Shown: positions 1 through 13,798 of the stretch, in pieces
Position numbering within the stretch: the stretch's first letter is position 1
Layout of the letters: every line of letters begins with the position of its first letter
Assembly: GCF_014524565.1 (NCBI RefSeq)
Contig: NZ_CP060139.1
Coordinates: 3,541,501 to 3,605,500 of the forward strand
DNA length: 64,000 nt
DNA from: Croceimicrobium hydrocarbonivorans
Lineage (GTDB): Bacteria > Bacteroidota > Bacteroidia > Flavobacteriales > Schleiferiaceae
Direction of reading: 5' to 3'
The notes under the pieces: generated by a model
What the model was told of the DNA's origin: nothing
Seen by the model: the letters and a program-made list of their open reading frames with translations, nothing else
Databases searched by the model: none
Translations under genes and position numbers: made by a program

Positions 1-435
1 AAACTCAAAATAGTCTTTGGAGTACTATTGATCGCTGGCCTTTCCTCATTCATTAGATCAGAATCAAAGCCAATTCCTGAAAGGGAAAGGTTTTATACCA
101 ACGAATTACAGAATGGCGATTCATTAGTAATAATTAGTTCTTTTTCGGGATGTTTTTCTGAAAGCGGTTTTACACTTGAAATTTTCATGGAATCAGATCA
201 GATTCACCTTTCCTATCAGGAAGGTGGCAAGTCTGAACTAATAAGCAAAACGCTTCCGCTTACCTTTAAAAAGGAACTTTCTGATTTTGAGTTAAGGACA
301 GTTCCAAATATGGCCTATGGCATAGGAACTAGCTGTAAGATGATCTTCAAATTTAATAATGAACGATTCGATACCATCAGGGAGTGCCCTCAAGAGAAAT
401 ACTATTACAGGCTTCTAGAAAGAATAAAAAACTAG
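1..435 (+). CDS. Hypothetical secreted protein, 5' end cut by window edge
   Basis: The reading frame is open from base 1. The first in-frame codons read KLKIVFGVLLIAGLSS, a basic residue followed by a hydrophobic run, which is the core of a signal peptide. The true start therefore lies just upstream of the window, and the TTG at 28 inside the hydrophobic run is not a credible start. The mature part is about 120 residues, looks beta-rich and has three cysteines (contexts SGCFS, TSCKM, RECPQ). I do not recognise the family. It probably acts in the periplasm or at the cell surface. The next gene is about 680 bp away, so it seems to end its transcription unit. Confidence 0.6.
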   Translation, partial: KLKIVFGVLLIAGLSSFIRSESKPIPERERFYTNELQNGDSLVIISSFSGCFSESGFTLEIFMESDQIHLSYQEGGKSELISKTLPLTFKKELSDFELRTVPNMAYGIGTSCKMIFKFNNERFDTIRECPQEKYYYRLLERIKN

Positions 436-1114
436 TTAGGAGGCTAGGCTTTTGGAGGGTGAATGGACTAGCTGAAAGCGGGGCTTACGGAGAGCAACCA
501 GGCTTGGCTTTGGTGGGCGAAAAGCTGCTTCGAATTGGAAATCAGCACAGCTAAACCGCCACAATCCTTATCGGTAGCTATTCACCTTGTAGCTAAAAAA
601 GTCCCTTGGACTCTAAAAGCGCGTTAACCTATATTGGCATCTAGATCTAAATTCCCCGCCTTTTTATCAATAAGATCAGGATCATAAATCCCTAAGCGAC
701 CTTACCAAGAAAAAGAAGCGGAGGTTCTTTTTTGACTATGCTGATCTTCGCTCCCAAATATGCTGATGATTTGACTCAAACATGCTGATGGTTGCCTTCA
801 TTCATGCTGATGTTTGGATTAAAACATAAGTATGTTTTTAATGAATGTCTCGATTCTAGGCTTTTGCTTAGCCGGAGATGGATGGCCAATATTCATTTAT
901 TGAATGCAGCAAGGAACTGGCGATTGAAGGCCTCGGTTTGGCTTTATAAGGATATTTTGCTTTTTGAGGCCGTGGAATGTGATGGGATAAAAATGTAATT
1001 TTAGGGGAGCTAAAACCTGAATTTAATCGCAATCTAGAAGCTGCATTTTTCTGAGCTGGATCTTAGTATTGCTGAGCTTGGGTTTTGGCGTGTAATCCAT
1101 GGTCCTCAGTAGAA
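436..1114. other. Long non-coding stretch with a possible transposon-end relic
   Basis: This is the longest gap in the accessory region. I see no convincing gene: the one open frame (about 792-998, 68 codons) starts inside repeat units and has no recognisable protein character. The notable content is a run of four 22-bp units at 738-825, listed separately. The part before the repeats (436-735) contains short G-rich and GCTAAA-like stretches but no clear hairpin or terminator. The gap may be the scar of a lost mobile element or a decayed gene. Confidence 0.5.
738..825. repeat. Four 22-bp repeat units with ATGCTGAT core
   Basis: The octamer ATGCTGAT starts at 738, 760, 782 and 804, an exact 22-bp period. 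Three of the four copies continue with G, and the rest of each unit is only loosely conserved. A period of about two DNA helix turns would place four binding sites on the same face. Repeated protein-binding sites of this kind are known at the ends of IS21- and Mu-type elements, whose transposases bind several sites per end. No istA or istB gene is present here, so a relic of one end is an inference; a repressor array is the alternative. Confidence 0.5.
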
Positions 1115-1924
1115 ATGATAAACTTCAAATTAAAAGATACAAAAAGCTATAAGCCAGTGGGGTCATCTACCGGCTTAAGCATGAGTTGGTATTGGCTTAC
1201 TGAGGGTGATTTGTGGATTGATTTAGGAGATTCAAGCTTGTATGAATATTCGCCTAAGGCACAAGAGTATTTCGGGGGCTTGAAATCTCAATACAATGAA
1301 TATCAAATCATTCGATTTATTGAAGATTTCACCGCATTGTTTGAAGTTATTAGTGAATCAATTCCCAATGATATTTATCGGTTAGCAGAGAACTCCGCGA
1401 AATTCCTACAGGATGCTCAAAAATGGTTGGATTTAAATGATGCTGAGGAAGACCAGCAAGATGATTTCTATTTTGAGAAATATGACAAATTAATTTCTTG
1501 GATAAATAGGAGGAGTTTGGATTCCGGTCATTTAGTTGGAGGTCCTAAGCTCTCATTCTTTAGAAATAAAGACAAAATAAGAGTCACTTGGCAAGCAGAT
1601 TATAAGCTTGAAAATGGAATTGACCTGTGGACGGCTGGAGAGGGGAGCATCGAATTTTCTTATTCGGAATTTATAAATGATGTTAAAGATTTTGGAGATA
1701 GATTCTTTAAACAAATGCAAGAACAGGTCGACTTAGCAGTTGAAAAGGAATGGAATGGCATTCAGATCGATAAGCAAAGATTGTTGGCTGAGCATAGTGA
1801 AAGAGAAATTGATTTTTGGAAACAGTTCAAGCTATTAAAAGGAAAGTCACCATCAGAAACAAAGTGGGAACTTATACGAGAACTGAAATCTCAAATGGAT
1901 GAGGAAATAAAAAGGAAAGCCTAA
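1115..1924 (+). CDS. DUF5984-like protein
   Basis: This 269-residue soluble protein has no signal peptide. The N-terminus (INFKLKD, then MSWYWLTEGDLWIDLGDSSL) follows the pattern I associate with DUF5984: a short beta strand, a W-x-x-LT-x-G-x-x-WI motif, a Y-S position and a later acidic 'EDF' helix. The frame is open back to a TTG at 1085, but that extension (MACNPWSS...) does not look like the family start, so the ATG at 1115 is chosen. DUF5984 is of unknown function and is often found among small genes near polymorphic toxins; an immunity role here would be inference. The C-terminal third is charged and helical. Confidence 0.65.
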   Translation: MINFKLKDTKSYKPVGSSTGLSMSWYWLTEGDLWIDLGDSSLYEYSPKAQEYFGGLKSQYNEYQIIRFIEDFTALFEVISESIPNDIYRLAENSAKFLQDAQKWLDLNDAEEDQQDDFYFEKYDKLISWINRRSLDSGHLVGGPKLSFFRNKDKIRVTWQADYKLENGIDLWTAGEGSIEFSYSEFINDVKDFGDRFFKQMQEQVDLAVEKEWNGIQIDKQRLLAEHSEREIDFWKQFKLLKGKSPSETKWELIRELKSQMDEEIKRKA

Positions 1925-2023
1925 TAAAGTCTTGTTCCTTGAGTAGATAAAGTCAAAAGCAAAACAAATTGCTTCGAATCAACCTAGACTCAATTCCTAG
2001 ATTCTTAAACACTAATTGAATAA

Positions 2024-2245
2024 ATGAAATACCTGTTCATAATTGGACTTATTCTTGGACTAACAAATTGTTCGCTTAGTCAAGATAAACTCGCGGAGCA
2101 CAAGGCTTTTAGGGAAACCTTTTCTAAAACAGAAATTGAAGATCTGCAATATCATCTGGGTTTTACAGTTGGTTTTAAGTTTCTTGTGCTTAAGGAAATT
2201 TCAACAAGGTCCTTTGGAGTGGGTCTGGAGAAAATTAACCTATAG
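2024..2245 (+). CDS. Small lipoprotein, possibly a truncated gene
   Basis: The N-terminus has a short basic start, a hydrophobic run and a lipobox-like GLTNC, so Cys16 could be lipidated. Only about 57 residues follow. The stretch FRETFSKTEIEDLQ resembles the opening of longer secreted Bacteroidota proteins in which an amphipathic helix precedes a larger domain. The abrupt end after 73 codons suggests a truncated copy. Flanking genes are unrelated and on the same strand. It is a real small gene or a gene fragment; I cannot decide which. Confidence 0.4.
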   Translation: MKYLFIIGLILGLTNCSLSQDKLAEHKAFRETFSKTEIEDLQYHLGFTVGFKFLVLKEISTRSFGVGLEKINL

Positions 2246-2315
2246 CAATTTTGATAGATCAAATTAAAAGGAGGAGAAGCGATATTAAGAACAGCTTTGC
2301 TGCAGGCTGAAAAAG

Positions 2316-2825
2316 ATGAATGCTAAAGACAAACAGAAAGAATTTATAAAGTCTTATTTGAAGCCGAAACTCCGTGAAGAAGGTTTTAGGACCACTGGGC
2401 AAACCTGGTGGAAGATTATGGATGATTTCTTTATCCTGATTAATCTTCAAAATTCACAATGGAATACTAAAGAGAGCTTAAGCTTTTGCTTCAATGTCGG
2501 AATTGGCTTAACCGAGAACCTGAAAGACCCAAACAAGAAAAGGGCGACCTATTTTGACCTAGCGACGCCATTACGGGAAGGAGCCTACTTGTCGGATAAA
2601 CGGGATAAGCACAAGTATCGACGGGACGCTTCGCTTGGCTATCTGATTACCGAGAAGACAGAGCTTGAAGATTTCAAAAATGAACTTAGGATCGATTTTG
2701 AGAATGATATTCTACCAAAATTAAATCGACTAAAGACGCTTCAAGACTGTTTAGAATTCTATCGACCATTTACCTTTTGGGGAGAGCGACTTCAAAAACA
2801 GGTGAACGATCTAAAGAAAAGCTAA
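2316..2825 (+). CDS. DUF4304-family protein
   Basis: This 169-residue cytosolic protein begins with a helix ending in K-x-x-LKPKLREEGF, followed by W-W-K and FILINLQNSQWNTKES, then a FNVGIG strand. This order (LKP-x-L-x-x-x-GF, a hydrophobic strand with LQ-x-SQW, then N-x-GI) is the signature I know for DUF4304. The family has no assigned biochemical function and is widespread as single small genes in bacteria, frequently in accessory regions. Length fits the family. The purine-rich stretch AAAAGGAGGAGAAG lies about 45 bp upstream, too far to act as a ribosome binding site. Confidence 0.75.
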   Translation: MNAKDKQKEFIKSYLKPKLREEGFRTTGQTWWKIMDDFFILINLQNSQWNTKESLSFCFNVGIGLTENLKDPNKKRATYFDLATPLREGAYLSDKRDKHKYRRDASLGYLITEKTELEDFKNELRIDFENDILPKLNRLKTLQDCLEFYRPFTFWGERLQKQVNDLKKS

Positions 2826-2970
2826 AATATCGGCCACTAAGTTCTGTTTATGTAAATGCAGCTAGTACGCCTTCAGATGCCCCAGCCTTAGATGATAATA
2901 AAATCACCTTTCCCTTGCTAAGCGCCAACAACTGCACTTATTTAGCTAAAATCTTAGCACCACTTGATTA

Positions 2971-3468
2971 ATGACAGAGGAACAGAAGATACTTTGGACC
3001 AAGATTGAAGAATTCGAGATAGATGACATAGACTCGAGCTTCACCTTTACAGATCGACTTGCAAGAGAAAATGGCTGGACTATAGAGTTTTCACTGCGGA
3101 CGGTAGAGGAATATAAAAGGTTCATCTTTTTAATCTGTATAGCAGACCATCCCTTAACTCCATCTGATCAAGTTGACCAAGTTTGGCATTTACATTTGAT
3201 ATATACCCAATCTTATTGGATTGACTTTTGTAAAAACACAATCCATCGAGACATTCATCACGGCCCTACGAAAGGAGGGCAACAAGAAAAGGACAAATAC
3301 AAGGATTGGTACGCGGAGACGAAAACACTTTATCAAAGAATATTTCAAACACGCCCTCCTGAAGACATTTGGCCATCAAGTCAAATTAGATTTGGTGAAT
3401 TGAACTATACGAGAGTCAATAGACATAGAAACTGGATAGTTCCTAAACCAAAGCTAAAAACAAACTAA
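2971..3468 (+). CDS. GRDP-like (DUF1399-type) protein with His-rich motif
   Basis: The 165-residue protein carries the hallmark of glycine-rich-domain-containing (GRDP/DUF1399-like) proteins: VDQVWHLHLIYTQSYW followed by IHRDIHHGPTKGG and then an E-x-x-K helix with Y-x-x-F and PP-x-x-x-WP. His73 and His75 (the H-x-H), His92, His96 and His97 are well placed for metal binding, but no catalytic activity is established for this family as far as I know. There is no signal peptide. Its TAA overlaps the next gene's ATG (TAATG at 3466-3470), which implies translational coupling to the Cys/Gly-tailed protein, so the two probably act together. Confidence 0.7.
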   Translation: MTEEQKILWTKIEEFEIDDIDSSFTFTDRLARENGWTIEFSLRTVEEYKRFIFLICIADHPLTPSDQVDQVWHLHLIYTQSYWIDFCKNTIHRDIHHGPTKGGQQEKDKYKDWYAETKTLYQRIFQTRPPEDIWPSSQIRFGELNYTRVNRHRNWIVPKPKLKTN

Positions 3469-4262
3469 TGGAATTACTCTCAAAACTTACGCCTGCGGAA
3501 ACCTATTTGCTTCTTGAAAGCTCAAATGCGGACCTAAAAAAATTATTGAAATACACCTTTATGGACTTGCTTCTCAAGCGAGTCCTTAAAACAACAGAGC
3601 TTAAAAAACAAAGTCATCGTAAGGACCGTGTTCGGGTATACAATTATGTAATTGCGGCTAAGAACTTCCCTAAGTACAAACCCTTAGCTCATGAAATGAT
3701 TTATCTAAGCCCATATTACAGAAGTAAGTCCATGAAAATCCTTTTTCGAAACTTGGTAGCTATGGGCTTTCAAAATGCTGGCGGTAAAAAAAGGTTCATC
3801 CGAAATTATCTGGTGACATCACCAAATCTTGAAGGATACTTTAAAAGCGGATTATTCAATTACTTGTTTGCTGAGCTCAAGTTGACTGATAAAGGCTTTG
3901 ATGCACAACAAAAAATTAAATTGAAAATTGCTCAACTTGAAAAGGAGCTGCCAGAGATTCTTCAGGCTGATAAGAAAAAAGCACTTGAAATTCTCCTCAC
4001 TATAAAGGGTAATATTTTCCTGCTAAAGGACCTTGACTTTGATTTATTGAAACAAATCGACAGACAATTAATGGAAGAATTCCAGCGGCAAAACAGAGAC
4101 TATGACACTGGATGTTACGGCTGTGCGACCTGGGATACTTATGACAGCTATGAAGATTCCTTCGATAGCAGTTATGACTCGGCTGACTCAGGAGGAGGAG
4201 ACAGCGGGTGTAGTAGTTGCAGTGGGTGCAGCGGTTGCGGAGGCTGTGGGGGTTGCAGTTAA
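3468..4262 (+). CDS. Protein with Gly/Ser/Cys-rich C-terminal tail (TIGR04222-like context)
   Basis: The 264-residue protein has a basic, helical N-terminal part (about 1-210) without a clear transmembrane segment. It is followed by an acidic Tyr/Asp/Ser linker and a low-complexity tail, SGCSSCSGCSGCGGCGGCS, with six cysteines in CxxC spacing; two further Cys (GCYGC) lie about 35 residues earlier. Low-complexity Gly/Cys tails are a known feature of proteins around the TIGR04222 'near_uncomplex' domain. Coupling to the GRDP-like gene upstream supports a two-gene unit. The tail could bind metal, be cross-linked or be modified. Function is unknown; a natural-product precursor role is speculative. 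Confidence 0.6.
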   Translation: MELLSKLTPAETYLLLESSNADLKKLLKYTFMDLLLKRVLKTTELKKQSHRKDRVRVYNYVIAAKNFPKYKPLAHEMIYLSPYYRSKSMKILFRNLVAMGFQNAGGKKRFIRNYLVTSPNLEGYFKSGLFNYLFAELKLTDKGFDAQQKIKLKIAQLEKELPEILQADKKKALEILLTIKGNIFLLKDLDFDLLKQIDRQLMEEFQRQNRDYDTGCYGCATWDTYDSYEDSFDSSYDSADSGGGDSGCSSCSGCSGCGGCGGCS

Positions 4263-4508
4263 GAAGAATAGAAATAATAGGAGGGCTTAAAGGAATTTGG
4301 GAGATGAGGAAAAATATTCTTCGGTTTGATATCGGAGAATAGACCTAGCTCTAGAACCTTTAAATTGAAAACTAATAAATCGCCTAGCAATTACAGGCAG
4401 TTTTAAAGCAGCTAAAGCGTTTGCGGTCGTCTAAACCTTAGTAGACCCTAAATAGCACTGTTTCAATGATTACCGCGACACCATATTTATTATTAGCGTA
4501 ATTAAAAA

Positions 4509-5081
4509 ATGAAGGACTTCGAAAAACAAATGACTCAATATTGGATGAAAGAATTTCCTAGTGTTTGGTCATTTTTAGGGTCGCCTGAAGAAGCAGGAAA
4601 AATTCCAACTGAACATAAGGACCAGATTCACTTCCTAAATGAAAAGGGGACTGTGCTGATTGAGCAGTTTCTGGAAAGTTCAAAAATGACAAAAGGCTTT
4701 CCTTTTAAGCCATTTAATGATTATTTCAAAAGGATTGAAGATTTCCGGATCACGGAAAATTGCGATACTGAAATAAAAGAGTGGTTATATAACAAAGGAA
4801 TACCCTTTTCAAAGTACGTTTTCATTGATTACGACCGAAGTGGACATGCGCTAATGTTGACTTGGAAAATGATACTAAAATATTGGGAAGGAATATTTTT
4901 CGCTGAGGACCTTTTAGTTTTCGACAGTGCCTTGCAATGGGGACTGTTTTATTACCATGGAGATCAACTCTGGTTTGGCTCAGAAGTGATTTTTAAGCCG
5001 AAAGCAGAAGCTCAAAGGACCATTGAAATGAACGAAATCCTAAAAAGCTTAAGCAATGCCAATAAAGGGTATGAAGCATAG
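4509..5081 (+). CDS. Hypothetical cytosolic protein
   Basis: The 190-residue protein lacks a signal peptide. A Trp/Phe/Tyr-rich central block (contexts LTWKMILKYWEGIFF, FDSALQWGLFYYHGD, LWFG) alternates short hydrophobic strands. It recalls small single-domain proteins of the immunity-protein type, where such a block forms a sheet, but I cannot name a family. The ATG at 4509 is the first in frame and sits after an AT-rich leader. It stands alone, with about 250 bp before and 120 bp after it. Confidence 0.5.
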   Translation: MKDFEKQMTQYWMKEFPSVWSFLGSPEEAGKIPTEHKDQIHFLNEKGTVLIEQFLESSKMTKGFPFKPFNDYFKRIEDFRITENCDTEIKEWLYNKGIPFSKYVFIDYDRSGHALMLTWKMILKYWEGIFFAEDLLVFDSALQWGLFYYHGDQLWFGSEVIFKPKAEAQRTIEMNEILKSLSNANKGYEA

Positions 5082-5202
5082 GTCAGGCAGTGGTTTCGAT
5101 CTCTTTGCAAGCTTTGTCATGGGCAACAATTGAACCTGTTCGTACTATTTTAATGAGTTCATTTTTAGGGAAGTTTACAGTTAACGAGATCCTTAAAGCA
5201 AA

Positions 5203-5853
5203 ATGGAATTAATGACTAAAGAAGAAGTCAATTACATACTCAATTATTTCAGCCACTTAATGCCCCAGGATGATAGGTTGACGCTTAAGTATCATATGTA
5301 TACCCATAGCAAGTCTGATGATCCAAAATTGCAGAAAGCAATAAATGAAAGAGCGGAGACTAGTGAAAAAGTAGAAAATCAGGAAATACTAGGGAAGGCT
5401 TATGAAGAGTTTGAACTGGGGGTGGCTAAAAAGATAGTGAATCAGTATCCTGATAAGCTGTACTTCAATCGGTGTCCAAAATGTAATTCACTTGCAAGAA
5501 CGCCTTATGCCAGGCAATGTAAAAGTTGTGGATTTAATTGGCATGAGAATGCTTTAGCGCGTTTTAAACTTGAAAGATCCTTTCAGCTCACTGGAAGACA
5601 ATTTTTTCTTCTAGGTGAAATAACAAAAGGAGAGATTAAGATTGGTCAGTTTATTGACCTAAAGATGCTAGGCCTAAGCAGAAGAGCTAAAATTGAAGCA
5701 GTAGAATTTTATGATAAAGGGGATAATGGTGAAGTCCAAGCAGGTATTGGTCTCGGACTAGGAGAACTAAGCGAAGAGGAAAAGGACTTTATTAAAAGAC
5801 TAGGTTCATTCGAAACTCCAATAGACATATTCGTGAAAAAATTAAATGGCTAA
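5203..5853 (+). CDS. Zinc-ribbon protein with EF-Tu domain II-like C-terminus
   Basis: In the 216-residue protein, Cys91-x2-Cys94 and Cys106-x2-Cys109 (CPKC and CKSCGFNWH) form a four-Cys zinc ribbon. The C-terminal segment from about 125, with LTGRQFFLLGEITKGEIKIG followed by a G-x-x-I-DL strand, resembles the beta-barrel of translation-factor domain II (a 'GRV..GxV..G.I..G' pattern). The N-terminal 90 residues are helical. I know no characterised protein with this order. It may bind nucleic acid or a protein partner, but that is inference. A second in-frame ATG (residue 4) could be the start. Confidence 0.5.
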   Translation: MELMTKEEVNYILNYFSHLMPQDDRLTLKYHMYTHSKSDDPKLQKAINERAETSEKVENQEILGKAYEEFELGVAKKIVNQYPDKLYFNRCPKCNSLARTPYARQCKSCGFNWHENALARFKLERSFQLTGRQFFLLGEITKGEIKIGQFIDLKMLGLSRRAKIEAVEFYDKGDNGEVQAGIGLGLGELSEEEKDFIKRLGSFETPIDIFVKKLNG

Positions 5854-5885
5854 AATAGTCTTGAGTATATAAACCTTAGCTTAAA

Positions 5886-6872
5886 ATGAATATGAGAACA
5901 ATCGGAACAACTTTTCTAATTCTAAGTTCCCTAACAAGCTTTGGACAATTCAGTGAACAGAATATTGAAACAGATTCGTCCTACATTGAAATAATCCGAA
6001 ATTCAGAATATCATATTTACGAAGAGACGTACAAGGAAAAGGACTCCGTCTGGTATAGTGTGCATTTCATTGATGACACCACAAGATTGAACACTGAAGG
6101 CTGGAAAACCAAAGATGACCAAGCACTTGGTGTGTGGCGAGAATACAATTTTAAAGGAGATCTGCTTTACACCCGTGACTATGATCAAGCAAGCTGTATT
6201 GTAAACAAAGACTTTTATCCTTATCACGACCTGGTAGAGCAAATGAAATCAAAGGCAGACAGCTTAATCATTTCAACCTACAGCCGCGAGTTTTTTAACA
6301 AGCATGTTCGTTTTGATTTCAACTGTAATTTTTATGATGATCAAGGATATGTAGGCACTTGGATTGAACCAATTGAAAGAAAGCCTACAAAATTCGTGTT
6401 CAGATATAGCGTGAAAATTGGAGAATCTAATTGGTATCCAGAAATGATAGGAATACAATTGGACTCAGTTGGGAATTACCAACCTACTCGTGGCTATTGG
6501 AATAACTCTGGTTTTGAAAATGTAAAGTCCCAAAATAGAACCTTTCAAATTGACAAGGTGAAAGCTATGGAAGCAGCCAAAGAGCATGGGCTAATGACCA
6601 CCGACCCCAATAAGGTTACTGAGTATCTAAATTGGGAAAAGTTTAGGAAAACAGAATTTTACAATGGACAATTCAGATACTACATTGCTGAATTAAGAGA
6701 GGAGATTAAGGACCTAAAGGAAAATGGTCGTTCGAGTGTTGTTTACAAATTCAATGTTTATTCCTTTAATCCTTGGACTGGAGAATTTGTAGAATTGAAA
6801 AAGATGAAAAACATTCATTCTTGGGGAGAAAGCAGTGGGTCTTGGTCAGGGTTAATTCCAGACAATAATTGA
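5886..6872 (+). CDS. Hypothetical secreted protein
   Basis: The N-terminus MNMRTIGTTFLILSSLTSFGQ is a typical Bacteroidota signal peptide ending in Gly-Gln. The mature part (about 305 residues) is rich in Trp, Tyr and Asn; the segment near residue 75-100 (GVWREYNFKGDLLYTRDYD) resembles MORN/'antitoxin-like' WREY-x-x-x-G-x-L repeats that occur in exported Bacteroidota proteins. I cannot assign a function. The gap to the preceding gene is only about 30 bp, so co-transcription with the zinc-ribbon gene is possible. Confidence 0.55.
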   Translation: MNMRTIGTTFLILSSLTSFGQFSEQNIETDSSYIEIIRNSEYHIYEETYKEKDSVWYSVHFIDDTTRLNTEGWKTKDDQALGVWREYNFKGDLLYTRDYDQASCIVNKDFYPYHDLVEQMKSKADSLIISTYSREFFNKHVRFDFNCNFYDDQGYVGTWIEPIERKPTKFVFRYSVKIGESNWYPEMIGIQLDSVGNYQPTRGYWNNSGFENVKSQNRTFQIDKVKAMEAAKEHGLMTTDPNKVTEYLNWEKFRKTEFYNGQFRYYIAELREEIKDLKENGRSSVVYKFNVYSFNPWTGEFVELKKMKNIHSWGESSGSWSGLIPDNN

Positions 6873-6980
6873 AAAGCTAAAGTGCAACCTCAAAATTCTA
6901 GATAGCACCTGCATCAGAAATAGGTTTCAAAGCCGGGCCGTTGCCGAACCTAATAGAACTAATGATTCAATTAAATCTAA

Positions 6981-7682
6981 ATGAGCATTTTCTCTTATCA
7001 TTTAGTCGAACTTCCTTTTTTTGTTGCCTTAAAAGGAATATTCTCGAATCCCATTTCTGAAAATACAGAAGGACTTATTCATTCGGAAACCATGACGGCA
7101 ATGACTCTAGGTTCTCCAATTCTTTCACCCTCCAGAGTTTTAATAGGTCAAGTAGCCCTATTTATGCAATGGGAAAATGAAAAGGCCCTTGAAAACTTTT
7201 TAGAACAAGACCGCTTTGGAAGAACCTTAGCCAAAGCGTGGCATGTACGCTTGTCTTTTGTTCGAGAATGGGGAAAGTTTAGTGGATTTAAGATTCCAAA
7301 TGATAAGGCCCAATTAGAAAGTTCAAATTCACCAGTGGTTGCTGTAACCTTGGCAAGAATGAAGCCTTTAGCAGTTCCTAGGTTTATACATTGGGGTAGA
7401 CCGGTTGAAAAACTGGTTAGAGACCATCCGGGAACTACTCTTTCCTTAGCCTCAGTTAAATTTCCCAATACGGTATCAACTTTTTCAATTTGGAAAACTG
7501 AAAAGGAAATGACTGATATGGTTCATGGTCATAGTAAGGTCGAAAGACCGAAAAGGCACTCAAATGCAATGAAAGAGCGAGAAAGAAAAGACTTTCATTT
7601 TGAGTTTAGCACTCTTCGATTTAAGCCAATAGCCGAGTATGGAACATGGAAAGGTCAATCAAATTTTCTTCCCAACAATTAA
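6981..7682 (+). CDS. Spheroidene monooxygenase (CrtA)-like protein
   Basis: The 233-residue protein matches the layout of CrtA-like proteins. These consist of two ferredoxin-like alpha/beta units with 'Q-x-ALFMQWENEKALENFL', then 'W-HVRLSFVREWG-x-(F/W)-x-G', 'LARMKPLAVPRF', a P-G position before an A/G-S-V strand, and finally 'STFSIWKTEKEM' with a His-rich helix. CrtA itself is a heme carotenoid oxygenase in phototrophs, but relatives outside phototrophs have unknown substrates. No carotenoid genes are near. The gap to the next gene is 15 bp, which indicates an operon with the 301-residue protein. Confidence 0.65.
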   Translation: MSIFSYHLVELPFFVALKGIFSNPISENTEGLIHSETMTAMTLGSPILSPSRVLIGQVALFMQWENEKALENFLEQDRFGRTLAKAWHVRLSFVREWGKFSGFKIPNDKAQLESSNSPVVAVTLARMKPLAVPRFIHWGRPVEKLVRDHPGTTLSLASVKFPNTVSTFSIWKTEKEMTDMVHGHSKVERPKRHSNAMKERERKDFHFEFSTLRFKPIAEYGTWKGQSNFLPNN

Positions 7683-7697
7683 ATCCTATTTAGGGAG

Positions 7698-8603
7698 ATG
7701 GGAGTAGCTAAGAAAAATCAAAGTATCCAAGACTGGATTAGCCAACAATGGGTTATTCTAACTGGAGAAAGAATTGACGAGGCAGCATACCAATGGCTTA
7801 TTGGCCCATTTGGTGGTACAAAAGGAATAGGGTTGAAATTCATCAAGCACTTGGTTAAGGATGAAGACTTAGTGATTGATGATCAAAGAGAAAAAAAGGG
7901 ATTACTGAATTCAATTAGGGACCTAGGACTATCAGAGGAAGAACTAAGCAGGCTTTCTTTAGATGTAATCGACTTTTATGAAAACACAGCAAATTATGAC
8001 CTGCTTTTGAAGGTGAAATGGAATCCAATCTTTAAAGTTTTCGGAACCGTACTAAAAAGAGTCTTCAGTAATAGAATTGAACAATTGAATGTTCCAATTG
8101 AAAACTTAAAAGATGCTTCTGGCCTTACAAACGAAATCCTAAAACTAGTCGATATCAAGACCAACGATGTTAAAAGAACAGTTTGGCTAAGGACTTTTAA
8201 ATCGACTGGTCAAATGGTGTACTCGGGAGTTTATGAAACATGCACATTACCCAATCAACAGATTTGCATTAAAGCAATTTTCCCTTTACCAAATGGAAGC
8301 GCCACGGTACTGCTAAGTCCTCGTGTTGGTGAAAATGGAGAGCTCATTTTGGATTCATCTGGCAAAAGAATAGGAGATAGCGGTTTTTACTTCTTACTAA
8401 GGGATTCAAAAGGTCAATTATGGACTAAATTTATCAAGTCCTTCAGAGATAAATTGGTCGTAAAAACTATTCAAGATAAAATTACAGCGATTCAAACTTT
8501 GACTTTGTGGAATTTAAAAGTTCTTGAATTTGAATACGAAATAAAAAAAAGACAAAACCTCAGAAAAGTTCCTGCGCAAAGCCCTTCGGGATTTGACGTC
8601 TAA
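7698..8603 (+). CDS. Uncharacterised protein, operon partner of CrtA-like gene
   Basis: The 301-residue soluble protein begins GVAKKNQSIQDWISQQWV. The central stretch, with FYENTANYDLLLKVKWNP and then NRIEQLNVP, is a pattern I associate with an unnamed family also seen in actinobacteria and firmicutes. The C-terminal half (residues about 155-270) looks like a beta-barrel or lipocalin-like sheet with repeated short strands and an 'LSPRVGENGELIL-SSGKRIGDSGFYF' turn. Function is unknown. It follows the CrtA-like gene by 15 bp, so both probably work on the same, unidentified, small hydrophobic substrate; that is inference only. Confidence 0.45.
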   Translation: MGVAKKNQSIQDWISQQWVILTGERIDEAAYQWLIGPFGGTKGIGLKFIKHLVKDEDLVIDDQREKKGLLNSIRDLGLSEEELSRLSLDVIDFYENTANYDLLLKVKWNPIFKVFGTVLKRVFSNRIEQLNVPIENLKDASGLTNEILKLVDIKTNDVKRTVWLRTFKSTGQMVYSGVYETCTLPNQQICIKAIFPLPNGSATVLLSPRVGENGELILDSSGKRIGDSGFYFLLRDSKGQLWTKFIKSFRDKLVVKTIQDKITAIQTLTLWNLKVLEFEYEIKKRQNLRKVPAQSPSGFDV

Positions 8604-8628
8604 CCAAAACCTTATTCCAAATCACAAA

Positions 8629-9120
8629 ATGAAATTGAGAAACTTAGCGATACTCTTTGTTGTCTTAACAATGTTTAGTTGTCAAACTACCGGCTCAAAA
8701 AATGAAAGTTCCGAAGCGGCAAAAACTCAGCAATCAGAACCAAATTTTGAAGCGGCACTTAAGTTTATAAATGACTACCTCGACTTTATAAATGGCCCAA
8801 AGTCTGAACTTGCTTATTTCGAATGGTTGGACCAACGAAATGATGTGACCCTTGGTTTTAAGAATGAACTGAAAAGAATAATAGATGAAGCCGAAAGAGC
8901 TGATCCAGAGTACGGCTTAGGCTTTGATCCCATTCTTGATGCTCAAGACAGTCCAGATGAATTTGTGCTTGATACAACTGACTCGGAATATTTGACGGTG
9001 AAGGGAAAAGATTGGCCAGATTTTAAGCTGACCTTAAAAGTGAAATTAGTAAATGAAAAGTGGCTTGTTGAAGGATCAGGTATAATAAACATTCCAGAAA
9101 ACAAGAGAATAGAAAGATAA
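8629..9120 (+). CDS. Lipoprotein with DUF3828-like domain
   Basis: The ATG at 8629 gives MKLRNLAILFVVLTMFSC, a signal peptide with lipobox MFSC (Cys18). The frame's TTG at 8593 lies inside the preceding gene and would bury this signal, so it is rejected. The mature domain (about 50-160) has 'FINDYLDFIN', 'WLDQRNDVTLGFKNEL', 'GFDPILDAQDSPDEF' and a terminal 'KWLVEGSGIINIP' strand, the pattern I know for DUF3828-type proteins with a cystatin/NTF2-like fold. Probable site is the inner face of the outer membrane or the cell surface. Function is unknown. Confidence 0.6.
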   Translation: MKLRNLAILFVVLTMFSCQTTGSKNESSEAAKTQQSEPNFEAALKFINDYLDFINGPKSELAYFEWLDQRNDVTLGFKNELKRIIDEAERADPEYGLGFDPILDAQDSPDEFVLDTTDSEYLTVKGKDWPDFKLTLKVKLVNEKWLVEGSGIINIPENKRIER

Positions 9121-9293
9121 AGGACGGTGCCCAAGGCAGCTTTTAGAGTATAAGAGCTAAAGGTCTACCGGCAAGGCTGCCCCTGGTGTATTCGCTTTCC
9201 TATTTATCGCCCAGATGGAAAGGGTTTTGAATTGTAAATGAATGCAGCTAAATCGCCTTAATCAAAAGCAAACCCTTTGAGTATAGATATAAA

Positions 9294-9671
9294 ATGAAGG
9301 ACCCCAAAACCGACAATACGATTCAGTTTAATGAGAACTTTTGTACTCACTTAGAATATCAGCTTGGACGGAGCTTTGGAAATTCTGATCGACAAGATCT
9401 CAAGGGTTTTTGGTGTGATGGAGTTTCTTGGGATCCTATTCCCGACCAATTGACAAAGAAAAGTGTGCAGGAAACCAGGCAAATTGTGACTAAAGCTTGG
9501 ATAGGAAAAGACGGACAAGATGAGTATGAAATGACTATCCGACTTGGTCAATCCGCCTTGGGTAGATGTGCGAAAGGAGCTGAAATGCTAGACTGCATTC
9601 CAAGTTCAGACTCTATGAATTGGATTGACATTGAGCCTCAGAACAGGAGAATAGTAATAAGATTGAAGTAG
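9294..9671 (+). CDS. Hypothetical small protein
   Basis: The 125-residue cytosolic protein is not recognised. It has five Cys (contexts NFCTHLE, FWCDGVSW, GRCAKGAE, LDCIPSS) and ends with a basic beta strand, RRIVIRLK. The predicted structure is mixed alpha/beta. It stands 170 bp after the DUF3828-like lipoprotein and 27 bp before the next gene, so it may be co-transcribed with the membrane-anchored protein downstream. Confidence 0.4.
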   Translation: MKDPKTDNTIQFNENFCTHLEYQLGRSFGNSDRQDLKGFWCDGVSWDPIPDQLTKKSVQETRQIVTKAWIGKDGQDEYEMTIRLGQSALGRCAKGAEMLDCIPSSDSMNWIDIEPQNRRIVIRLK

Positions 9672-9698
9672 AATCCAAATCGAGGCACCAAGATCATA

Positions 9699-10346
9699 AT
9701 GCGAATAATTAAACTCATCCTTTTCCTAATTACCGGACTATTAATGACTTACCTAATTGTTGCCGGATCAATTTCAGAGCTATTTTTAGAAGGATATCGA
9801 ATGCCTTTAAATGGACAGAGAGCTGAAATGGGACTGCAACAAATGGCGGGAAATTGGCATCTGGACAGCACAGAACTTATTGGATACGGGAATTACAGTA
9901 TTTCAGAATTGGAAGACATAGCCCCATGGAGACTCTGGTTGGAGGATGAAAAATTCCTTTGTGAATATTGGTCTCCTAAAGCTCAAACTAATCCAAGCTA
10001 CTATAAAAGAATATGTTATGTACAGAGCAGATGGTTTTGGAAAAACCGGGTCCTTTTTGAATTTGACCACTATAAGAGGGATCTGAAAGGATCAAAATCA
10101 GCTGAATTAGCCATTAAGTTTGACTTTAGCCGAAATAAAATCGCAGCTTATTTAGACAGCCTGGACCATCAAAAAGAAATGGTCAGCTTAAATGAAGGGG
10201 CCGAGAAAAAGGGATATTGGTATTGTGGTACTGGTTTAGATGACAATAATAAGCTTCACTCAGACTATAGTATTATTGACATTGAACGAGCCCATTCGAT
10301 TTTGAAAGATTGGAAGGAACTCTCGACCTGGAAGGAGGGAGAATAA
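9699..10346 (+). CDS. Hypothetical membrane-anchored protein
   Basis: One N-terminal transmembrane segment (RIIKLILFLITGLLMTYLIV) is followed by about 190 extracytoplasmic residues with many Trp and Tyr (MAGNWHLDST, PWRLWLEDEKFLCEYW, RWFWKNRVLFEFDHY). The 'GNWHLDS' opening recalls lipocalin-like proteins in which a beta-barrel begins with a G-x-W motif, a weak resemblance. I cannot assign a function. Confidence 0.45.
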   Translation: MRIIKLILFLITGLLMTYLIVAGSISELFLEGYRMPLNGQRAEMGLQQMAGNWHLDSTELIGYGNYSISELEDIAPWRLWLEDEKFLCEYWSPKAQTNPSYYKRICYVQSRWFWKNRVLFEFDHYKRDLKGSKSAELAIKFDFSRNKIAAYLDSLDHQKEMVSLNEGAEKKGYWYCGTGLDDNNKLHSDYSIIDIERAHSILKDWKELSTWKEGE

Positions 10347-10488
10347 AAAAGAAGAAGACCTGATAGGGTCTAAATAAATAGGGCTTGAAGTCTTAAAATG
10401 AAGATCTTAGATCTAAAATTATATTCTCTCTGGTGTCTCTACATAGTTTTGGGGAATGTGCCCATAGAAGGCCTTGGTCGACTATGAA

Positions 10489-10516
10489 GAAAATGAAAGG
10501 AGCTAAATTGTGACGA
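10489..10516. repeat. 28-bp intergenic repeat, copy 1
   Basis: This stretch matches 11911-11938 at 25 of 28 positions (shared core GAAAATGAAAGGAGC-AAATTG). Both copies sit about 40 bp upstream of a + strand start codon and after an unrelated gene. Similar GCTAAA-containing pieces occur in the leaders of other genes of the array (near 6877 and 9248). It may be a duplicated promoter or leader element, or a junction left by gene insertion. Confidence 0.4.
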
Positions 10517-10556
10517 GTCTTTATTAAAGGCTTATTTGTGCTATGGAAAAAGAACT

Positions 10557-11384
10557 ATGCTAAGAATCAAAGCTCTAATTATCCTGGGTCTGCTAAGCAG
10601 TTTAGTTTATGGCCAATCAGATTCTGATTTTCCAGCAGAGCTTATCAAGGAAGCCCAAATTGATTCATGCATAATAAAGTGTGAGTCTGCAGCCAATTAT
10701 CCTCAAAAATATTCATTTGATAAAGAGGGGAGAATCAAGACATTTTCATTTCCAACAGCTTATCACCCTCAAAGTGATTCTTCCATAAATGGAAGAAGTA
10801 TAAGCACTTATTATTATGATACCGAAGGTAGATTGCTGAAAAAAACAGAAAGATCAGACTTTGGTGAAAGCTCAATTAAATTCCAGGAAAAGCTATCGGA
10901 ATGTTTTATATATGACCTCAATAATAAGTTGATAAGCCACTTATTTTACTATTCTACTTTGAGTAAGCTAATAAGCTATCAGTATGATGAAAACCAGCTG
11001 ATTTCGGAAATCACTTATAATTTTAGTGGTAATTCAAAGTCGGAGCAGCCAGAGGTTCAAACCACTAAGGTTTTCTACCGGGGTACAGATTGGATTAGTT
11101 ATGATAAAGAGGCTAAGATCCAAGATAGTTTAGTGAGTATCGTAGATTCTTCGAATTTCAAGGAAACTACTTTTAATTATCATTTTAAGAATGGTAGGCT
11201 TGTCAAAGATCACACTGAAGAATGGATTGCCTTCTTTAACAAGAACTGGCAAATGATCGAACTCCTTCATAAAAGACGTGGCCTCCAATGGACTACTAAG
11301 ATTTACAGAGCCGAAACTGGACTAATCACAAAAATAGTGCAGCTTGGTGAAGATACTACTGAATACAGCTTTGAGTATAAATAG
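10557..11384 (+). CDS. Secreted protein with YD/RHS-like repeats
   Basis: The ATG at 10557 gives MLRIKALIILGLLSSLVYGQ, a clear signal peptide; the upstream TTG at 10536 would precede it with a polar stretch and is rejected. The mature part contains YD-repeat-like units: 'KYSFDKEGRIKTF', 'YYYDTEGRLLKKTERS', 'FIYDLNNKLISHLFYY' and 'YQYDENQLISEITYNF'. Such units form beta-strand spirals in RHS and teneurin proteins; short exported versions are common in Bacteroidota with no known role. Length is 275 residues, with no toxin-like C-terminus visible. Confidence 0.6.
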   Translation: MLRIKALIILGLLSSLVYGQSDSDFPAELIKEAQIDSCIIKCESAANYPQKYSFDKEGRIKTFSFPTAYHPQSDSSINGRSISTYYYDTEGRLLKKTERSDFGESSIKFQEKLSECFIYDLNNKLISHLFYYSTLSKLISYQYDENQLISEITYNFSGNSKSEQPEVQTTKVFYRGTDWISYDKEAKIQDSLVSIVDSSNFKETTFNYHFKNGRLVKDHTEEWIAFFNKNWQMIELLHKRRGLQWTTKIYRAETGLITKIVQLGEDTTEYSFEYK

Positions 11385-11468
11385 GACTAACACTTGATGG
11401 CTTTGGAGCTAAGGAATCGCTCCTATACCTCTTTAGCCATCTACACTTTTAATTATTAAACTTTCAAA

Positions 11469-11897
11469 TTGAACCTGAAACTTAAACTATCCCCGAATCT
11501 CATCCTGGCTATCAGTATTGGCCTTATATATCTCTGGTTCGGAATCTTGAAGTACTTTCCAAATCTTAGTCCTGCAGAGGATTTGGCTCAAAACACAATA
11601 GGCTTGCTGACTTTTAATTTGATCTCTCCTAGGCTATCGATAATCCTTCTTGCGACTTGGGAATCGCTGGTGGGCCTTCTATTTCTATTGAATATTTTCA
11701 GGAGAACAGCCATTATTCTGGCCTTAATACACATGACTTTCACCTTTTTCCCTTTGCTATTCTTTAGGGATCAGGTATTCGGTAATATTCCACTACAACT
11801 CACCTTATTAGGTCAGTACATCATTAAAAATTTGATCATTATAGCTGGTCTATTAGTCCTGTATAAACTGCCTATAAGCAACCCAAAACCGCAGTAA
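11469..11897 (+). CDS. DoxX-like membrane protein
   Basis: This 142-residue protein has four predicted membrane segments (about 10-25, 50-75, 80-100, 110-132). The opening 'YLWFGILKYFPNLSPAEDLAQ' and the later 'WE-x-x-VGLLFLL' with 'RRTAIILALIHM' fit the DoxX/DUF417-type family of small four-helix membrane proteins. No ATG is available: a TAA lies in frame four codons upstream, so the TTG at 11469 is the best start. Family members are linked to thiosulfate or quinone redox chemistry in a few organisms, but no such context is seen here. Confidence 0.6.
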   Translation: MNLKLKLSPNLILAISIGLIYLWFGILKYFPNLSPAEDLAQNTIGLLTFNLISPRLSIILLATWESLVGLLFLLNIFRRTAIILALIHMTFTFFPLLFFRDQVFGNIPLQLTLLGQYIIKNLIIIAGLLVLYKLPISNPKPQ

Positions 11898-11910
11898 AGG
11901 CCTCTGGATT

Positions 11911-11938
11911 GAAAATGAAAGGAGCGAAATTGCAACGA
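11911..11938. repeat. 28-bp intergenic repeat, copy 2
   Basis: Second copy of the element at 10489-10516 (25 of 28 identical). It begins 14 bp after the stop of the DoxX-like gene and ends 36 bp before the start of the YeeZ-like gene. The shared position before a start codon suggests a leader or promoter element rather than a random duplication. Confidence 0.4.
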
Positions 11939-11973
11939 ACTCTACTCAAACCCTTGTATCGTAAGGAATATAA

Positions 11974-12738
11974 ATGAATCAAAAGATTAGCATATTAGGA
12001 TGTGGCTGGCTTGGTTTAGCATTAGCCAATGACCTGCTTAACAAAGGCTATGATGTCAGTGGTTCAACTACATCTAAGGACAGAATAAAGGAACTTTCTG
12101 ATTACGGAATCAGCCCATATCTTATCGATATAGCTTCGATAGATTCTGTTATACATGAGTTTTTGAATTCCGACCTTTTAATAATCGCAATTACTTCGAA
12201 AAGTGTTGACCACTTTAAAACACTGGTGAAATATATTGAAAAGTCTCAGGTGCAAAAGGTCATTTTCATTAGTTCAACTTCGGTTTATCCATACACAAAT
12301 GGGATAGTAGATGAAAATTGTAATACTTTAAATAAACCTCTTGTTGAAATAGAAAAATTATTCACTTCAAATCCTTCATTTAAGACGACTGTTTTGAGGT
12401 TTGGAGGTTTGTTTGGCTATGACCGAAAACCAGGATTGTTTATTAAACAAAAACCTATTATTGAAAACCCTCAAGGCTATGTGAATTTGATACATAGAGA
12501 TGATTGCATAGAAATCATTGAGCAAATTATTATGAAGAACCTGTGGGCTGAAGTACTAAATGCCTGTGCAGCTGATCACCCAAGCAGACGAGATTTTTAC
12601 CTTAAAGAATCTAGGAAGATTGGACTTGAGTCAATTTCATTTGATGAAAATTCAAATAATGAGTACAAAATTATTAGCTCTGAAAAATTAAAAAGTTTAT
12701 TGAACTACCAGTTTAAATATGCTGATTTAATGATTTGA
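11974..12738 (+). CDS. YeeZ-like NAD(P)-dependent SDR/epimerase-fold protein
   Basis: The 254-residue protein has an N-terminal Rossmann motif, ISILGCGWLGLALA (GxGxxG form), then 'VIFISSTSVYP' at the position of the extended-SDR active-site strand and 'VLRFGGLFG'. This order is typical of YeeZ-type atypical SDRs. The canonical Y-x3-K pair is not seen after the SSTSVYP strand, so catalysis is uncertain. Relatives are annotated as nucleoside-diphosphate-sugar epimerases without proof. It has the most conserved look of any gene in the accessory block. Confidence 0.75.
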   Translation: MNQKISILGCGWLGLALANDLLNKGYDVSGSTTSKDRIKELSDYGISPYLIDIASIDSVIHEFLNSDLLIIAITSKSVDHFKTLVKYIEKSQVQKVIFISSTSVYPYTNGIVDENCNTLNKPLVEIEKLFTSNPSFKTTVLRFGGLFGYDRKPGLFIKQKPIIENPQGYVNLIHRDDCIEIIEQIIMKNLWAEVLNACAADHPSRRDFYLKESRKIGLESISFDENSNNEYKIISSEKLKSLLNYQFKYADLMI

Positions 12739-12817
12739 CATGAGTGAAAAAATGGTCTAACGGTAAGCCCTAAGATCAATAGACTTGATTTACTACTGGC
12801 ATATAATTTCCTGAGAA

Positions 12818-13798
12818 ATGAAAATCAGATCCTTAATTAGTGTATTAGGCTTTATCTACGCTTTAACCGCTTGCGAGGGCAGTACCCAAAAGGATACTGA
12901 TTACAGGATCTATCATGCAAGGATTATAGAAGCGGAAGAACTAATTAGTCAGGAAAATTATCAAGCAGCTTTGACTCAGTATGAAGACTTGTTTGCCGAC
13001 TATGATTTCATTTTTCTGCGTGATTATAAAATAGCGGCTCAAATTTCCTTCCTGATTGGAGATAAGGAAAAAGGCTTGCTCTACCTTAAAAAAGCAATTG
13101 CCAATGGCTGGGAATGGACTGAGTTCAAAGAGCATAAATTCTTAAATCAGCATCTTTTGGCTGCAGACTGGAAATCCATTGAAGACCAATATGAGGACCT
13201 GCGTAGTCAATTCCTAAATAGAATAGATGTAAGCCTTAGAGCCAGAGTTCAGGCCATGTTTGAAAAGGATCAAGAACTTGCCTATGAGGCTTACATAATT
13301 GAAGATGAGCAAGAACAAGAGAAATTCATAGCGGAGAATTTCCCAAGGCATAGCGAAGTACAATTAGCTAAGCTTTTGGAGATTCTGGAAACGAAGGGCT
13401 ACCCCGGGGAGTATCTAATAGGGAATGATTTCTGGGTATCCACGATATTGAGTCATCATAATTCCCAGGGCCTGGAATATGTTAAAACGGATTCCCTATT
13501 TGATTTCATCAAGCCAAAACTGAAGCAATACTTAAAACTGGGCTATATATCGCCCTATGAAATGGCTTTGCCGGAAGATTGGAAGGGAACAATACTATCT
13601 GAAGGGGAGGATTCGCCCTATGGCTATCTGGTACCGCCCAAGAGATCCAATATTTCCCGAATTAACAAAGCCAGAAACGCCATTGGCTTAGGCTCGGTTG
13701 AACTAAGAAATAAATTGATAGCCATTGAAGCTAAAACGGGTATCAGTCTTTATTTACCAGATTGGGTGGAGGGAAAAATTGAAATCAAAGGGAATTAA
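12818..13798 (+). CDS. Lipoprotein with TPR-like and DUF6624-like parts
   Basis: The N-terminus MKIRSLISVLGFIYALTAC is a signal peptide with lipobox (Cys19). Residues about 25-110 form helical pairs like TPRs ('AEELISQENYQAALTQYEDL', 'GDKEKGLLYLKKAIANGW'). The second half includes 'LLEILETKGYPGEYLIG', 'HHNSQGLEY', 'GYISPYEMAL' and 'EDW', a layout I associate with DUF6624-type proteins, in which a His-rich helix follows a GWP-like turn. Function is unknown. It is probably anchored to the outer membrane. Confidence 0.5.
   Translation: MKIRSLISVLGFIYALTACEGSTQKDTDYRIYHARIIEAEELISQENYQAALTQYEDLFADYDFIFLRDYKIAAQISFLIGDKEKGLLYLKKAIANGWEWTEFKEHKFLNQHLLAADWKSIEDQYEDLRSQFLNRIDVSLRARVQAMFEKDQELAYEAYIIEDEQEQEKFIAENFPRHSEVQLAKLLEILETKGYPGEYLIGNDFWVSTILSHHNSQGLEYVKTDSLFDFIKPKLKQYLKLGYISPYEMALPEDWKGTILSEGEDSPYGYLVPPKRSNISRINKARNAIGLGSVELRNKLIAIEAKTGISLYLPDWVEGKIEIKGN

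What the first reader, a model, noticed from the sequence alone, without database searches (positions are those of the whole stretch)
2971..4262. GRDP-like protein translationally coupled to a protein with a CxxC-repeated Gly/Cys tail
The first protein has a conserved H-x-H and HH motif; the second ends in six cysteines spaced as CxxC in a Gly/Ser background. The TAATG overlap says they are made together. Neither protein has a known biochemical role. The pair could be a metal-handling or peptide-modifying system, in which the tail is the substrate.
Basis: partly seen in the sequence, partly recalled or inferred. Interest (0 to 1): 0.7.

Follow-up and report, generated by a model that had tools for sequence, protein, structure and literature searches.

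The report
Conserved protein paired with cysteine tail
Two overlapping bacterial genes make a well-conserved small protein and a partner that ends in a string of cysteines; in nearly all relatives examined the two sit side by side or are fused, which suggests that the first protein works on, or with, the cysteine tail, although what it does there is not known.

Summary
ORF A (2971-3468, 165 aa, WHLH and HH) overlaps ORF B (3468-4262, 264 aa) by one base. B ends in six CxxC-spaced cysteines, plus a separate CYGC. Both look soluble.

Among the best 80 of 549 A-encoding loci, 58 carry stand-alone A, and 55 of these have B directly downstream, mostly overlapping. In the other 22, A is fused to membrane segments and, in 20, a tail with three or more Cys. 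The tail's end is B's most conserved stretch.

Natural experiment: whole-genome searches found B in 10 genomes. All 7 B genes beside A have the tail; all 3 without intact A lack it, one with a decayed A remnant upstream. Divergent A relatives precede an unrelated tailed carrier (2 loci), carry their own short Cys tail, or sit in a grasp-with-spasm peptide cluster (1 locus).

So A and tail are probably one functional unit, with the tail as A's client. Metal-thiolate handling is my best guess; enzymatic tail modification is the main rival. MNIO modification is unlikely, since this genome has no MNIO match. It is a split variant of the GRDP-like/TIGR04222 Cys-tail architecture, whose function is unknown.

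The parts
2971..3468 (+). ORF A, 165 aa, all-helical GRDP-like-related protein
   Evidence: 77 rows aligned; AlphaFold2 mean pLDDT 91.7, helices only; the A' profile finds it at E 5.5e-18
3184..3195 (+). W72-H73-L74-H75 motif of A
   Evidence: W72, H73, H75 invariant in 77 rows; W and H73 also invariant in the 7 divergent relatives, H75 kept in 1 of 7
3229..3231 (+). C87 of A, candidate ligand or active-site thiol
   Evidence: invariant in 77 rows and in 7 divergent relatives
3256..3261 (+). H96-H97 of A
   Evidence: H97 invariant, H96 at 90% or more; H97 equivalent invariant in 7 divergent relatives
3466..3470 (+). TAATG stop/start overlap of A and B (1 base)
   Evidence: sequence; in 58 named loci with stand-alone A the offset to the next gene is -1 in 6 and -4 in 27, one of the latter being L121's TIGR04222 neighbour
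3468..4262 (+). ORF B, 264 aa, soluble tail carrier (two winged-helix-like units and a helical bundle, then the tail; the fold reading is mine from the helix/strand order)
   Evidence: 49 rows aligned; AlphaFold2 mean pLDDT 84.4, blocks of the tail at 47-56
4113..4124 (+). C216-Y-G-C219 of B, an additional CxxC not in the finding
   Evidence: sequence
4191..4259 (+). Cys/Gly/Ser tail of B, residues 242-264, six Cys spaced CxxC
   Evidence: residues 253-264 are the most conserved block of B, 3.51 bits; Cys density 17.3% in the last 30 residues vs 0.3% in the core, 49 proteins

Best explanation
A and the Cys/Gly tail are one functional unit that acts in the cytoplasm. A is the tail's dedicated partner and B is a soluble carrier that presents the tail; in other bacteria the same partner and tail are joined in one membrane-anchored protein. 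The inferred chemistry is that the tail's evenly spaced thiolates bind a soft or transition metal, and that A, through its conserved D69/H73/C87/H97 set, docks on the tail and forms, loads or unloads that metal site. The gene overlap would keep A and its client in proportion. Shown by comparison: co-occurrence, overlap, conserved tail, absence of the tail without A, swapping of carriers. Inferred: same-side topology (from charge rules) and physical contact of A and tail. Guessed: metal as the cargo.
For: 55 of 58 named loci with stand-alone A have B directly downstream; the offset is -4 or -1 in 33 of 58, L121's TIGR04222 neighbour included. 20 of 22 fused loci have 3 or more Cys in the last 30 residues; L117 has a single CxxC and L122 runs off its contig. 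The end of the tail is more conserved than any other block of B. In whole-genome searches B occurs in 10 genomes: 7 beside A, all with the tail, and 3 without intact A, all without it. In one of the three, decayed A letters lie upstream of B. Two divergent A' genes precede an unrelated 367-374 aa protein ending in SSC repeats. Other A' proteins end in their own short Cys-rich tails. No other ORF cluster recurs beside the loci at comparable frequency: A in 76, B in 52, next 9 of 80. In 23 fused proteins with a hydrophobic hairpin or segment, the stretch before it is net positive in 23 and the one after it in 17, which places A and tail on the cytoplasmic side in most. D69, W72, H73, C87 and H97 are invariant in 77 rows and their equivalents in 7 divergent rows. 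Plant AtGRDP2 has the same order: DUF1399, then a C-terminal Gly-rich domain with interspersed Cys (PMC4299439, passages read).
Against: Nothing shows metal binding. No recurrent neighbour stands out as metal-related (at most 9 of 80 loci; examples read by eye, no models run). The number of Cys in the last 30 residues of B varies from 1 to 8, loose for a defined cluster. L112 has A without B; L118's A is broken and without B; L121 has A beside a TIGR04222 protein without a Cys tail. L022's neighbour has no Cys tail. L021, a second A copy, has no tail of its own. The 6 of 23 fused proteins whose C-flank is not net positive leave their topology open.
Confidence: 0.42

Rival explanations
1. A is an enzyme that covalently modifies the tail's cysteines (a RiPP-like or protein modification), in trans on B or in cis in the fusions.
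For: Same dependence of tail on A. A divergent A' gene overlaps by 4 bases a grasp-with-spasm ATP-grasp maturase gene (TIGR04192, E 3.2e-102, over its cut-off), followed by a SPASM maturase (TIGR04193, E 3.7e-91, over its cut-off) and a peptidase/exporter-type ABC gene (models below their cut-offs), with a GG-containing small ORF on the other side, in G586. Another A' follows a 65-78 aa Cys-rich ORF with a GG motif in G483. Invariant Cys and His in A could be an active site.
Against: No cofactor-binding or catalytic family matched in A. Only one A' was found inside a recognised peptide-modification cluster, and BLAST with MNIO, ATP-grasp and SPASM queries found none among 839 neighbouring ORFs of the 80 loci; distant relatives could escape BLAST.
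Confidence: 0.25
2. A and the tail form a structural or assembly device: the Gly/Ser/Cys tail is a disulfide-linking or sticky oligomerisation segment, or a membrane or target anchor, and A is its binding scaffold.
For: Variable Cys number and low complexity of the tail; fused forms tether A and tail to the membrane; AF2 leaves the tail unstructured.
Against: The compartment is predicted to be cytoplasmic, where disulfides are not favoured (general knowledge). C254, C257 and C260 with their Gly neighbours are at 90% or more in 49 rows, more than a mere linker needs.
Confidence: 0.22
3. The tail is a substrate of an MNIO (DUF692) enzyme, as proposed for a subset of TIGR04222 proteins, and binds copper after modification.
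For: TIGR04222 proteins with C-terminal Ser/Gly/Cys regions are often encoded beside MNIO genes (PMC12452194, abstract and passages read); some A fusions contain bona fide TIGR04222 domains.
Against: No MNIO match in the window's genome nor in G025 and G178, which carry the same pair; 10 of 15 genomes with A have none (G025 is only 83% complete). No MNIO relative by BLAST among 839 neighbouring ORFs of 80 loci. Of the five MNIO loci I read ORFs around three (L027, L028, L030): none shows A or B within about 1.5 kb, and L028 has a precursor-like ORF with GKCGE/EGKCG repeats.
Confidence: 0.05
4. The pairing is incidental: adjacency and tail have no joint function.
For: The pair is patchy: A in 20 of 196 genomes of the order, B in 3 of 196 plus one spurious match, and 0 of 4 congeners in that search have A.
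Against: 55 of 58 adjacency over several phyla, fusion, tail conservation and joint absence.
Confidence: 0.03

Closest known systems
GRDP-like / DUF1399 (PF07173) glycine-rich domain-containing proteins, e.g. Arabidopsis AtGRDP2
   Same: An N-terminal conserved domain of about 140 aa followed, in AtGRDP2, by a C-terminal Gly-rich domain with interspersed Cys, consensus [CG]GGGCGG[GC] (PMC4299439, passages read). 25 of 77 bacterial A rows match PF07173 at E<=0.01.
   Different: In the window the domain and the tail are on two overlapping genes. The window's own A does not reach the Pfam model. I did not compare plant sequences themselves.
TIGR04222 (near_uncomplex) membrane proteins, putative MNIO substrates
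   Same: Low-complexity Ser/Gly/Cys C-terminus; in cyanobacteria and some Flavobacteriales the A domain is fused to a TIGR04222 or TIGR04222-like domain; in L121 a TIGR04222 protein takes B's place.
   Different: Window B has no membrane segment by hydropathy, and 0 of 49 B proteins match the TIGR04222 model at E<=0.01. Core-to-core profile similarity is not significant. No MNIO match in the genome. The tail is predicted cytoplasmic here, whereas the review predicts a periplasmic tail for TIGR04222 proteins.
Grasp-with-spasm peptide clusters (TIGR04192/TIGR04193)
   Same: One divergent A' is encoded inside such a cluster in G586, overlapping the ATP-grasp gene.
   Different: Reading the ORFs around the window pair, without running models on all of them, shows no such gene set.
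Bufferins and EGKCG/oxazolin copper-chelating peptides
   Same: Cys-containing tails or repeats; metal handling is a possible shared theme (PMC12452194, abstract and passages read).
   Different: No signal peptide by eye and no MNIO match in the genome; the partner here is A. DUF2063 partners were not searched for.

Membership tests
GRDP-like (PF07173) | score above the Pfam gathering cut-off (22.7 bits) | tested here: not met
   window A: no match at E<=1; the five relatives whose scores I saw reach 16.0-19.5 bits; 25 of 77 rows match at E<=0.01, best 3e-5. I call A GRDP-like-related, not a member.
GRDP-like (PF07173) | N-terminal domain plus C-terminal Gly-rich, Cys-containing region in one protein (as in plant AtGRDP2) | tested here: not met
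   in the window the two halves are separate ORFs; met in most fused relatives (20 of 22 with 3 or more Cys in the last 30 residues)
TIGR04222 | score above the NCBIfam cut-off (43 bits) | tested here: not met
   window B: no match at E<=1; 0 of 49 B proteins at E<=0.01
TIGR04222 | transmembrane segments | tested here: not met
   highest 19-residue mean hydropathy of window B is 1.0; of 49 B proteins 3 pass 1.6, marginally, at most 1.71. No membrane-protein predictor was run.
TIGR04222 | homologous core | tested here: inconclusive
   hhalign without tails: B vs the TIGR04222-like membrane set E 0.031, vs the bona fide set E 0.42; control B vs A 0.77. The earlier E 1.6e-10 did not survive removal of the tails.
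MNIO-modified RiPP precursor | MNIO (PF05114) gene in the genome | tested here: not met
   0 matches at E<=0.001 in G000, completeness 99.97%; the control rings in Caulobacter vibrioides and Deinobacterium chartae
MNIO-modified RiPP precursor | modified Cys residues | not testable with these tools
   needs mass spectrometry
Grasp-with-spasm RiPP system | TIGR04192 and TIGR04193 maturases encoded beside the pair | not tested
   met for the A' of G586; for the window only the ORF lists were read and a few neighbours scanned
Metallothionein-like or metal-handling protein | metal binding by the Cys tail | not testable with these tools
   needs purified protein

The most novel reading that the evidence does not exclude
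The GRDP-like domain is a widespread, uncharacterised tail-maturation domain (enzyme or metal inserter) whose dedicated client is a C-terminal CxxC/Gly tail. Bacteria place this tail on the domain itself, on membrane anchors, on TIGR04222 proteins, on soluble partners such as B, or on an unrelated carrier B', and one branch has been recruited into peptide natural-product clusters. Plant GRDPs would then be the same machine in cis.
Probability: 0.28. Interest if true: 0.82.

Novelty: new variant of a known kind. Interest (0 to 1): 0.56.

Why it matters
GRDP-like proteins occur in plants and bacteria and have phenotypes in Arabidopsis, but I saw no biochemistry for them; TIGR04222 Cys tails are suspected peptide-modification substrates with no MNIO enzyme in a third of their genomes (PMC12452194). 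The split A/B pair separates domain and tail into two apparently soluble proteins. This makes the open question (does the GRDP-like domain act on the tail, and how?) directly testable by co-expression, which is harder with large fused or membrane forms. The joint absence of A and tail names the dependency to test.

Tried and rejected
B core as a TIGR04222 relative: the first hhalign run gave E 1.6e-10 and another 3.8e-11 (aligned on the tails only). With tails cut off the values are 0.031 and 0.42, so I do not claim homology; only the Flavobacteriales fused core vs the bona fide TIGR04222 set stays significant (1.9e-10).

Viral contigs: a scan with the B alignment found no relative. The one phage-collection hit of A (H10/L181) is an unverified metagenomic record whose next ORF reads like a glycosyltransferase, so I take it as probably bacterial (the reading is mine).

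Fold searches: A and B have no PDB match with E <= 0.001; VIA-align 2 on A gave Z at most 3.1 and was not run on B. These show neither a new fold nor a known one.

PDB by sequence: A none at E<=1; B 8 weak matches, best 0.0083 to a focal adhesion kinase/paxillin construct, taken as chance.

Integron or repeat array around the pair: the repeat finder on 1-20000 listed two direct-repeat families, neither near the pair.

Tree of A: split vs fused needs 4 changes on the quick tree, but for the 'pair' label well-supported branches force only 1, so independent fusion events are likely, not shown.

In one search the queries built from L028 to L031 were wrong reading frames or strands and are void; one search repeats the test with three correctly read MNIO proteins (L027, L028, L030).

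Literature: searches (listings seen) showed no paper that treats the bacterial A/B pair; 'grasp-with-spasm' had 0 papers.

Full report
What is there. B's six tail cysteines lie at residues 248 to 263 with exact CxxC spacing; a further CYGC lies at 216-219. B is the only ATG-initiated ORF of at least 60 aa in the window with 4 or more Cys in its last 30 residues. Pfam and NCBIfam give no match over a cut-off for either protein.

Distribution. In 196 genomes of the order, A was found in 20 and B in 3, plus one match with three internal stops that I discard. In 395 genomes of the phylum, A was found in 20 and B in 2. The window's 4 congeners lack A. So the pair is patchy, an accessory trait. They are mainly Bacteroidota, with Spirochaetota, Cyanobacteriota, Planctomycetota, Pseudomonadota, Bdellovibrionota and Verrucomicrobiota (labels). 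L054 and L062 appear to be the same contigs as L002 and L003, by equal contig lengths.

Coupling. Of these 80, 58 have stand-alone A (139-182 aa) and 22 have A fused into a longer protein. Of the 58, 55 have B directly downstream: 51 read whole, 3 cut by the contig end (L053, L098, L099) and 1 with a broken frame in a metagenome assembly (L080). The 3 exceptions are L112 (no B), L118 (A broken, no B) and L121 (a TIGR04222 membrane protein instead). With the starts my script chose, the offset is -4 in 27 and -1 in 6 of 58, L121 included; the other offsets depend more on start choice. Apart from A (76 loci) and B (52 loci) no ORF cluster recurs in more than 9 of 80 neighbourhoods, some of which are cut short by contig ends. 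Bacteroidota are reported to lack Shine-Dalgarno sequences (PMC6847099, start of abstract in the listing), so such overlaps may matter for expression; this is inference.

The tail. In 49 aligned B proteins, the window's included (3 further complete B, in L065, L072 and L082, were left out, and their tails can be seen), 47 have 3 or more Cys in the last 30 residues (exceptions L073, L123) and 46 have CxxC in the last 40. Cys density is 17.3% in the last 30 residues and 0.3% in the core. The last 12 residues are the most conserved block (3.51 bits; blocks before residue 241 range from 0.92 to 2.91). Among the 22 fused proteins, 20 have 3 or more Cys in the last 30 residues, L117 has 2, and L122 runs off its contig. 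Of 654 unrelated neighbouring ORFs, 9 have 3 or more Cys there and 0 of these are also Gly/Ser/Cys/Asp-rich; 46 of 49 B proteins meet both conditions.

A natural experiment. Whole-genome searches with B (order; phylum; Flavobacteriaceae) found it in 10 distinct genomes. In seven (G000, G025, G178, G570, G583, G599, G697) A lies directly upstream, overlapping B by 1 or 4 bases, and B has its tail. In three (G471, G561, G567) no A is found, and B keeps its core (28-39% identity to the window's B) but has at most 1 Cys in its last 30 residues. In G567 the 274 bases upstream of B still hold recognisable letters of A's C-terminus, broken by stops and frame changes. 7 of 7 against 0 of 3 is a small sample of related organisms, and G025 and G178 also occur among the 58 loci above. 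It suggests that the tail is kept only while A is present and that B's core has a role of its own. The Fisher value printed mixes samples and I do not rely on it.

Other carriers. A profile of seven divergent A' proteins finds the window's A at E 5.5e-18, so A' and A are related. In L148 and L051 an A' gene is followed, 6 and 20 bases downstream, by a 374 and a 367 aa protein that ends in repeated SSC; a third A' (L022) is followed by a 343 aa protein without such a tail. Other A' proteins end in Cys-rich segments of their own (L145, L146, L159, L181). In G586 the A' gene overlaps by 4 bases a grasp-with-spasm ATP-grasp maturase gene (TIGR04192, E 3.2e-102); a SPASM maturase (TIGR04193, E 3.7e-91) and an ABC gene of the peptide-exporter type follow, and a small GG-containing ORF precedes it. 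In G483 an A' follows a Cys-rich small ORF with a GG motif; its only Pfam hint is E 0.081. These two are leads, not proof, that the domain serves peptide modification.

Architecture and topology. Fused forms have either a hydrophobic hairpin (about 240-290 aa proteins) or a TIGR04222/TIGR04222-like membrane domain (about 380-560 aa). Two cyanobacterial fusions score 136 and 148 bits against a cut-off of 43, L121's separate neighbour 97, and three further fusions stay below it. In a crude hydropathy scan of 23 hairpin-type proteins (15 of the 22 fused named loci and 8 others; L115 shows one segment, L117 and L131 have long loops) the N-flank is net positive in 23 and the C-flank in 17, so A and tail probably both face the cytoplasm in most; the window's A and B show no membrane segment. 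The review of TIGR04222 places those tails in the periplasm (PMC12452194, abstract and passages read); the hairpin forms examined here argue for the cytoplasm.

Structure. A is predicted with high confidence as all-helical (pLDDT 91.7). D69, W72, H73, Y82, C87, H97 and others are invariant in 77 rows; D, W, H, T, Y, C, G and H are invariant in the seven A' rows. Neither A nor B resembles a solved structure at a useful level.

Mechanism. Shown by comparison: A and the tail are kept together in cis or in trans and are missing together. Inferred: they lie on the same side of the membrane, and A contacts the tail. Not shown: the chemistry. I favour thiolate-metal handling (0.42 for the whole statement) over covalent modification (0.25) and a structural role (0.22). 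MNIO modification is unlikely here because the genome has no MNIO match and BLAST finds no MNIO, ATP-grasp or SPASM relative near the 80 loci.

Relation to the known. Plant AtGRDP2 combines DUF1399 with a C-terminal Gly-rich domain with interspersed Cys (PMC4299439, passages read), and many TIGR04222 proteins have Ser/Gly/Cys C-termini (PMC12452194). The window's pair is a split, soluble variant of that architecture. A fails the PF07173 cut-off and B fails TIGR04222, so I file neither as a member.

Noticed in passing
L149:6497-9452 (G586): A divergent GRDP-like gene lies inside a grasp-with-spasm peptide cluster and overlaps the ATP-grasp gene by 4 bases; a small ORF with VKGGCCGW precedes it. 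A possible new component of such clusters.
   Followed up: partly
L150:8682-9448 (G483): A divergent GRDP-like gene follows a 65-78 aa Cys-rich ORF with a GG-leader look and precedes a hydrolase-like ORF (reading mine).
   Followed up: partly
L148:1369-2940 and L051:1426-2981: GRDP-like gene followed by an unnamed 367-374 aa protein ending in SSC repeats; no NCBIfam match at E<=0.01 or Pfam match at E<=0.1.
   Followed up: partly
L138:1-1078 (G567): Decayed A gene upstream of an intact B core whose Cys tail has degenerated.
   Followed up: yes
L021:1357-2620 (G139): A second, tail-less A copy; the gene just upstream ends in SCGCGG.
   Followed up: no
L015 and L018: The about 460 aa fused form lies directly beside a TPR/SH3 membrane protein that looks like BatE of the aerotolerance operon (name recalled, no model run).
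   Followed up: no
window 2316-2825: DUF4304 protein (Pfam E 1.3e-10) just upstream of the pair.
   Followed up: no
window 5203-5853; L058:4189-4620: Downstream protein with a zinc-ribbon-like CxxC pair and weak EF-Tu similarity; a similar CPKCN-LARTP segment is encoded near the A/B pair in L058.
   Followed up: no
window 13908-14945; L155:152-1186: A 345 aa protein of the window has a similar-looking relative directly upstream of the divergent A' of G178 (compared by eye).
   Followed up: no
L181 (MT837770.1): A record labelled unverified bacteriophage encodes a GRDP-like protein with its own CxxC tail beside a glycosyltransferase-like ORF; probably bacterial sequence.
   Followed up: partly
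window 2777-2971: A 64 aa TTG-start ORF ends in TAA overlapping A's ATG (also TAATG); probably not a gene.
   Followed up: no
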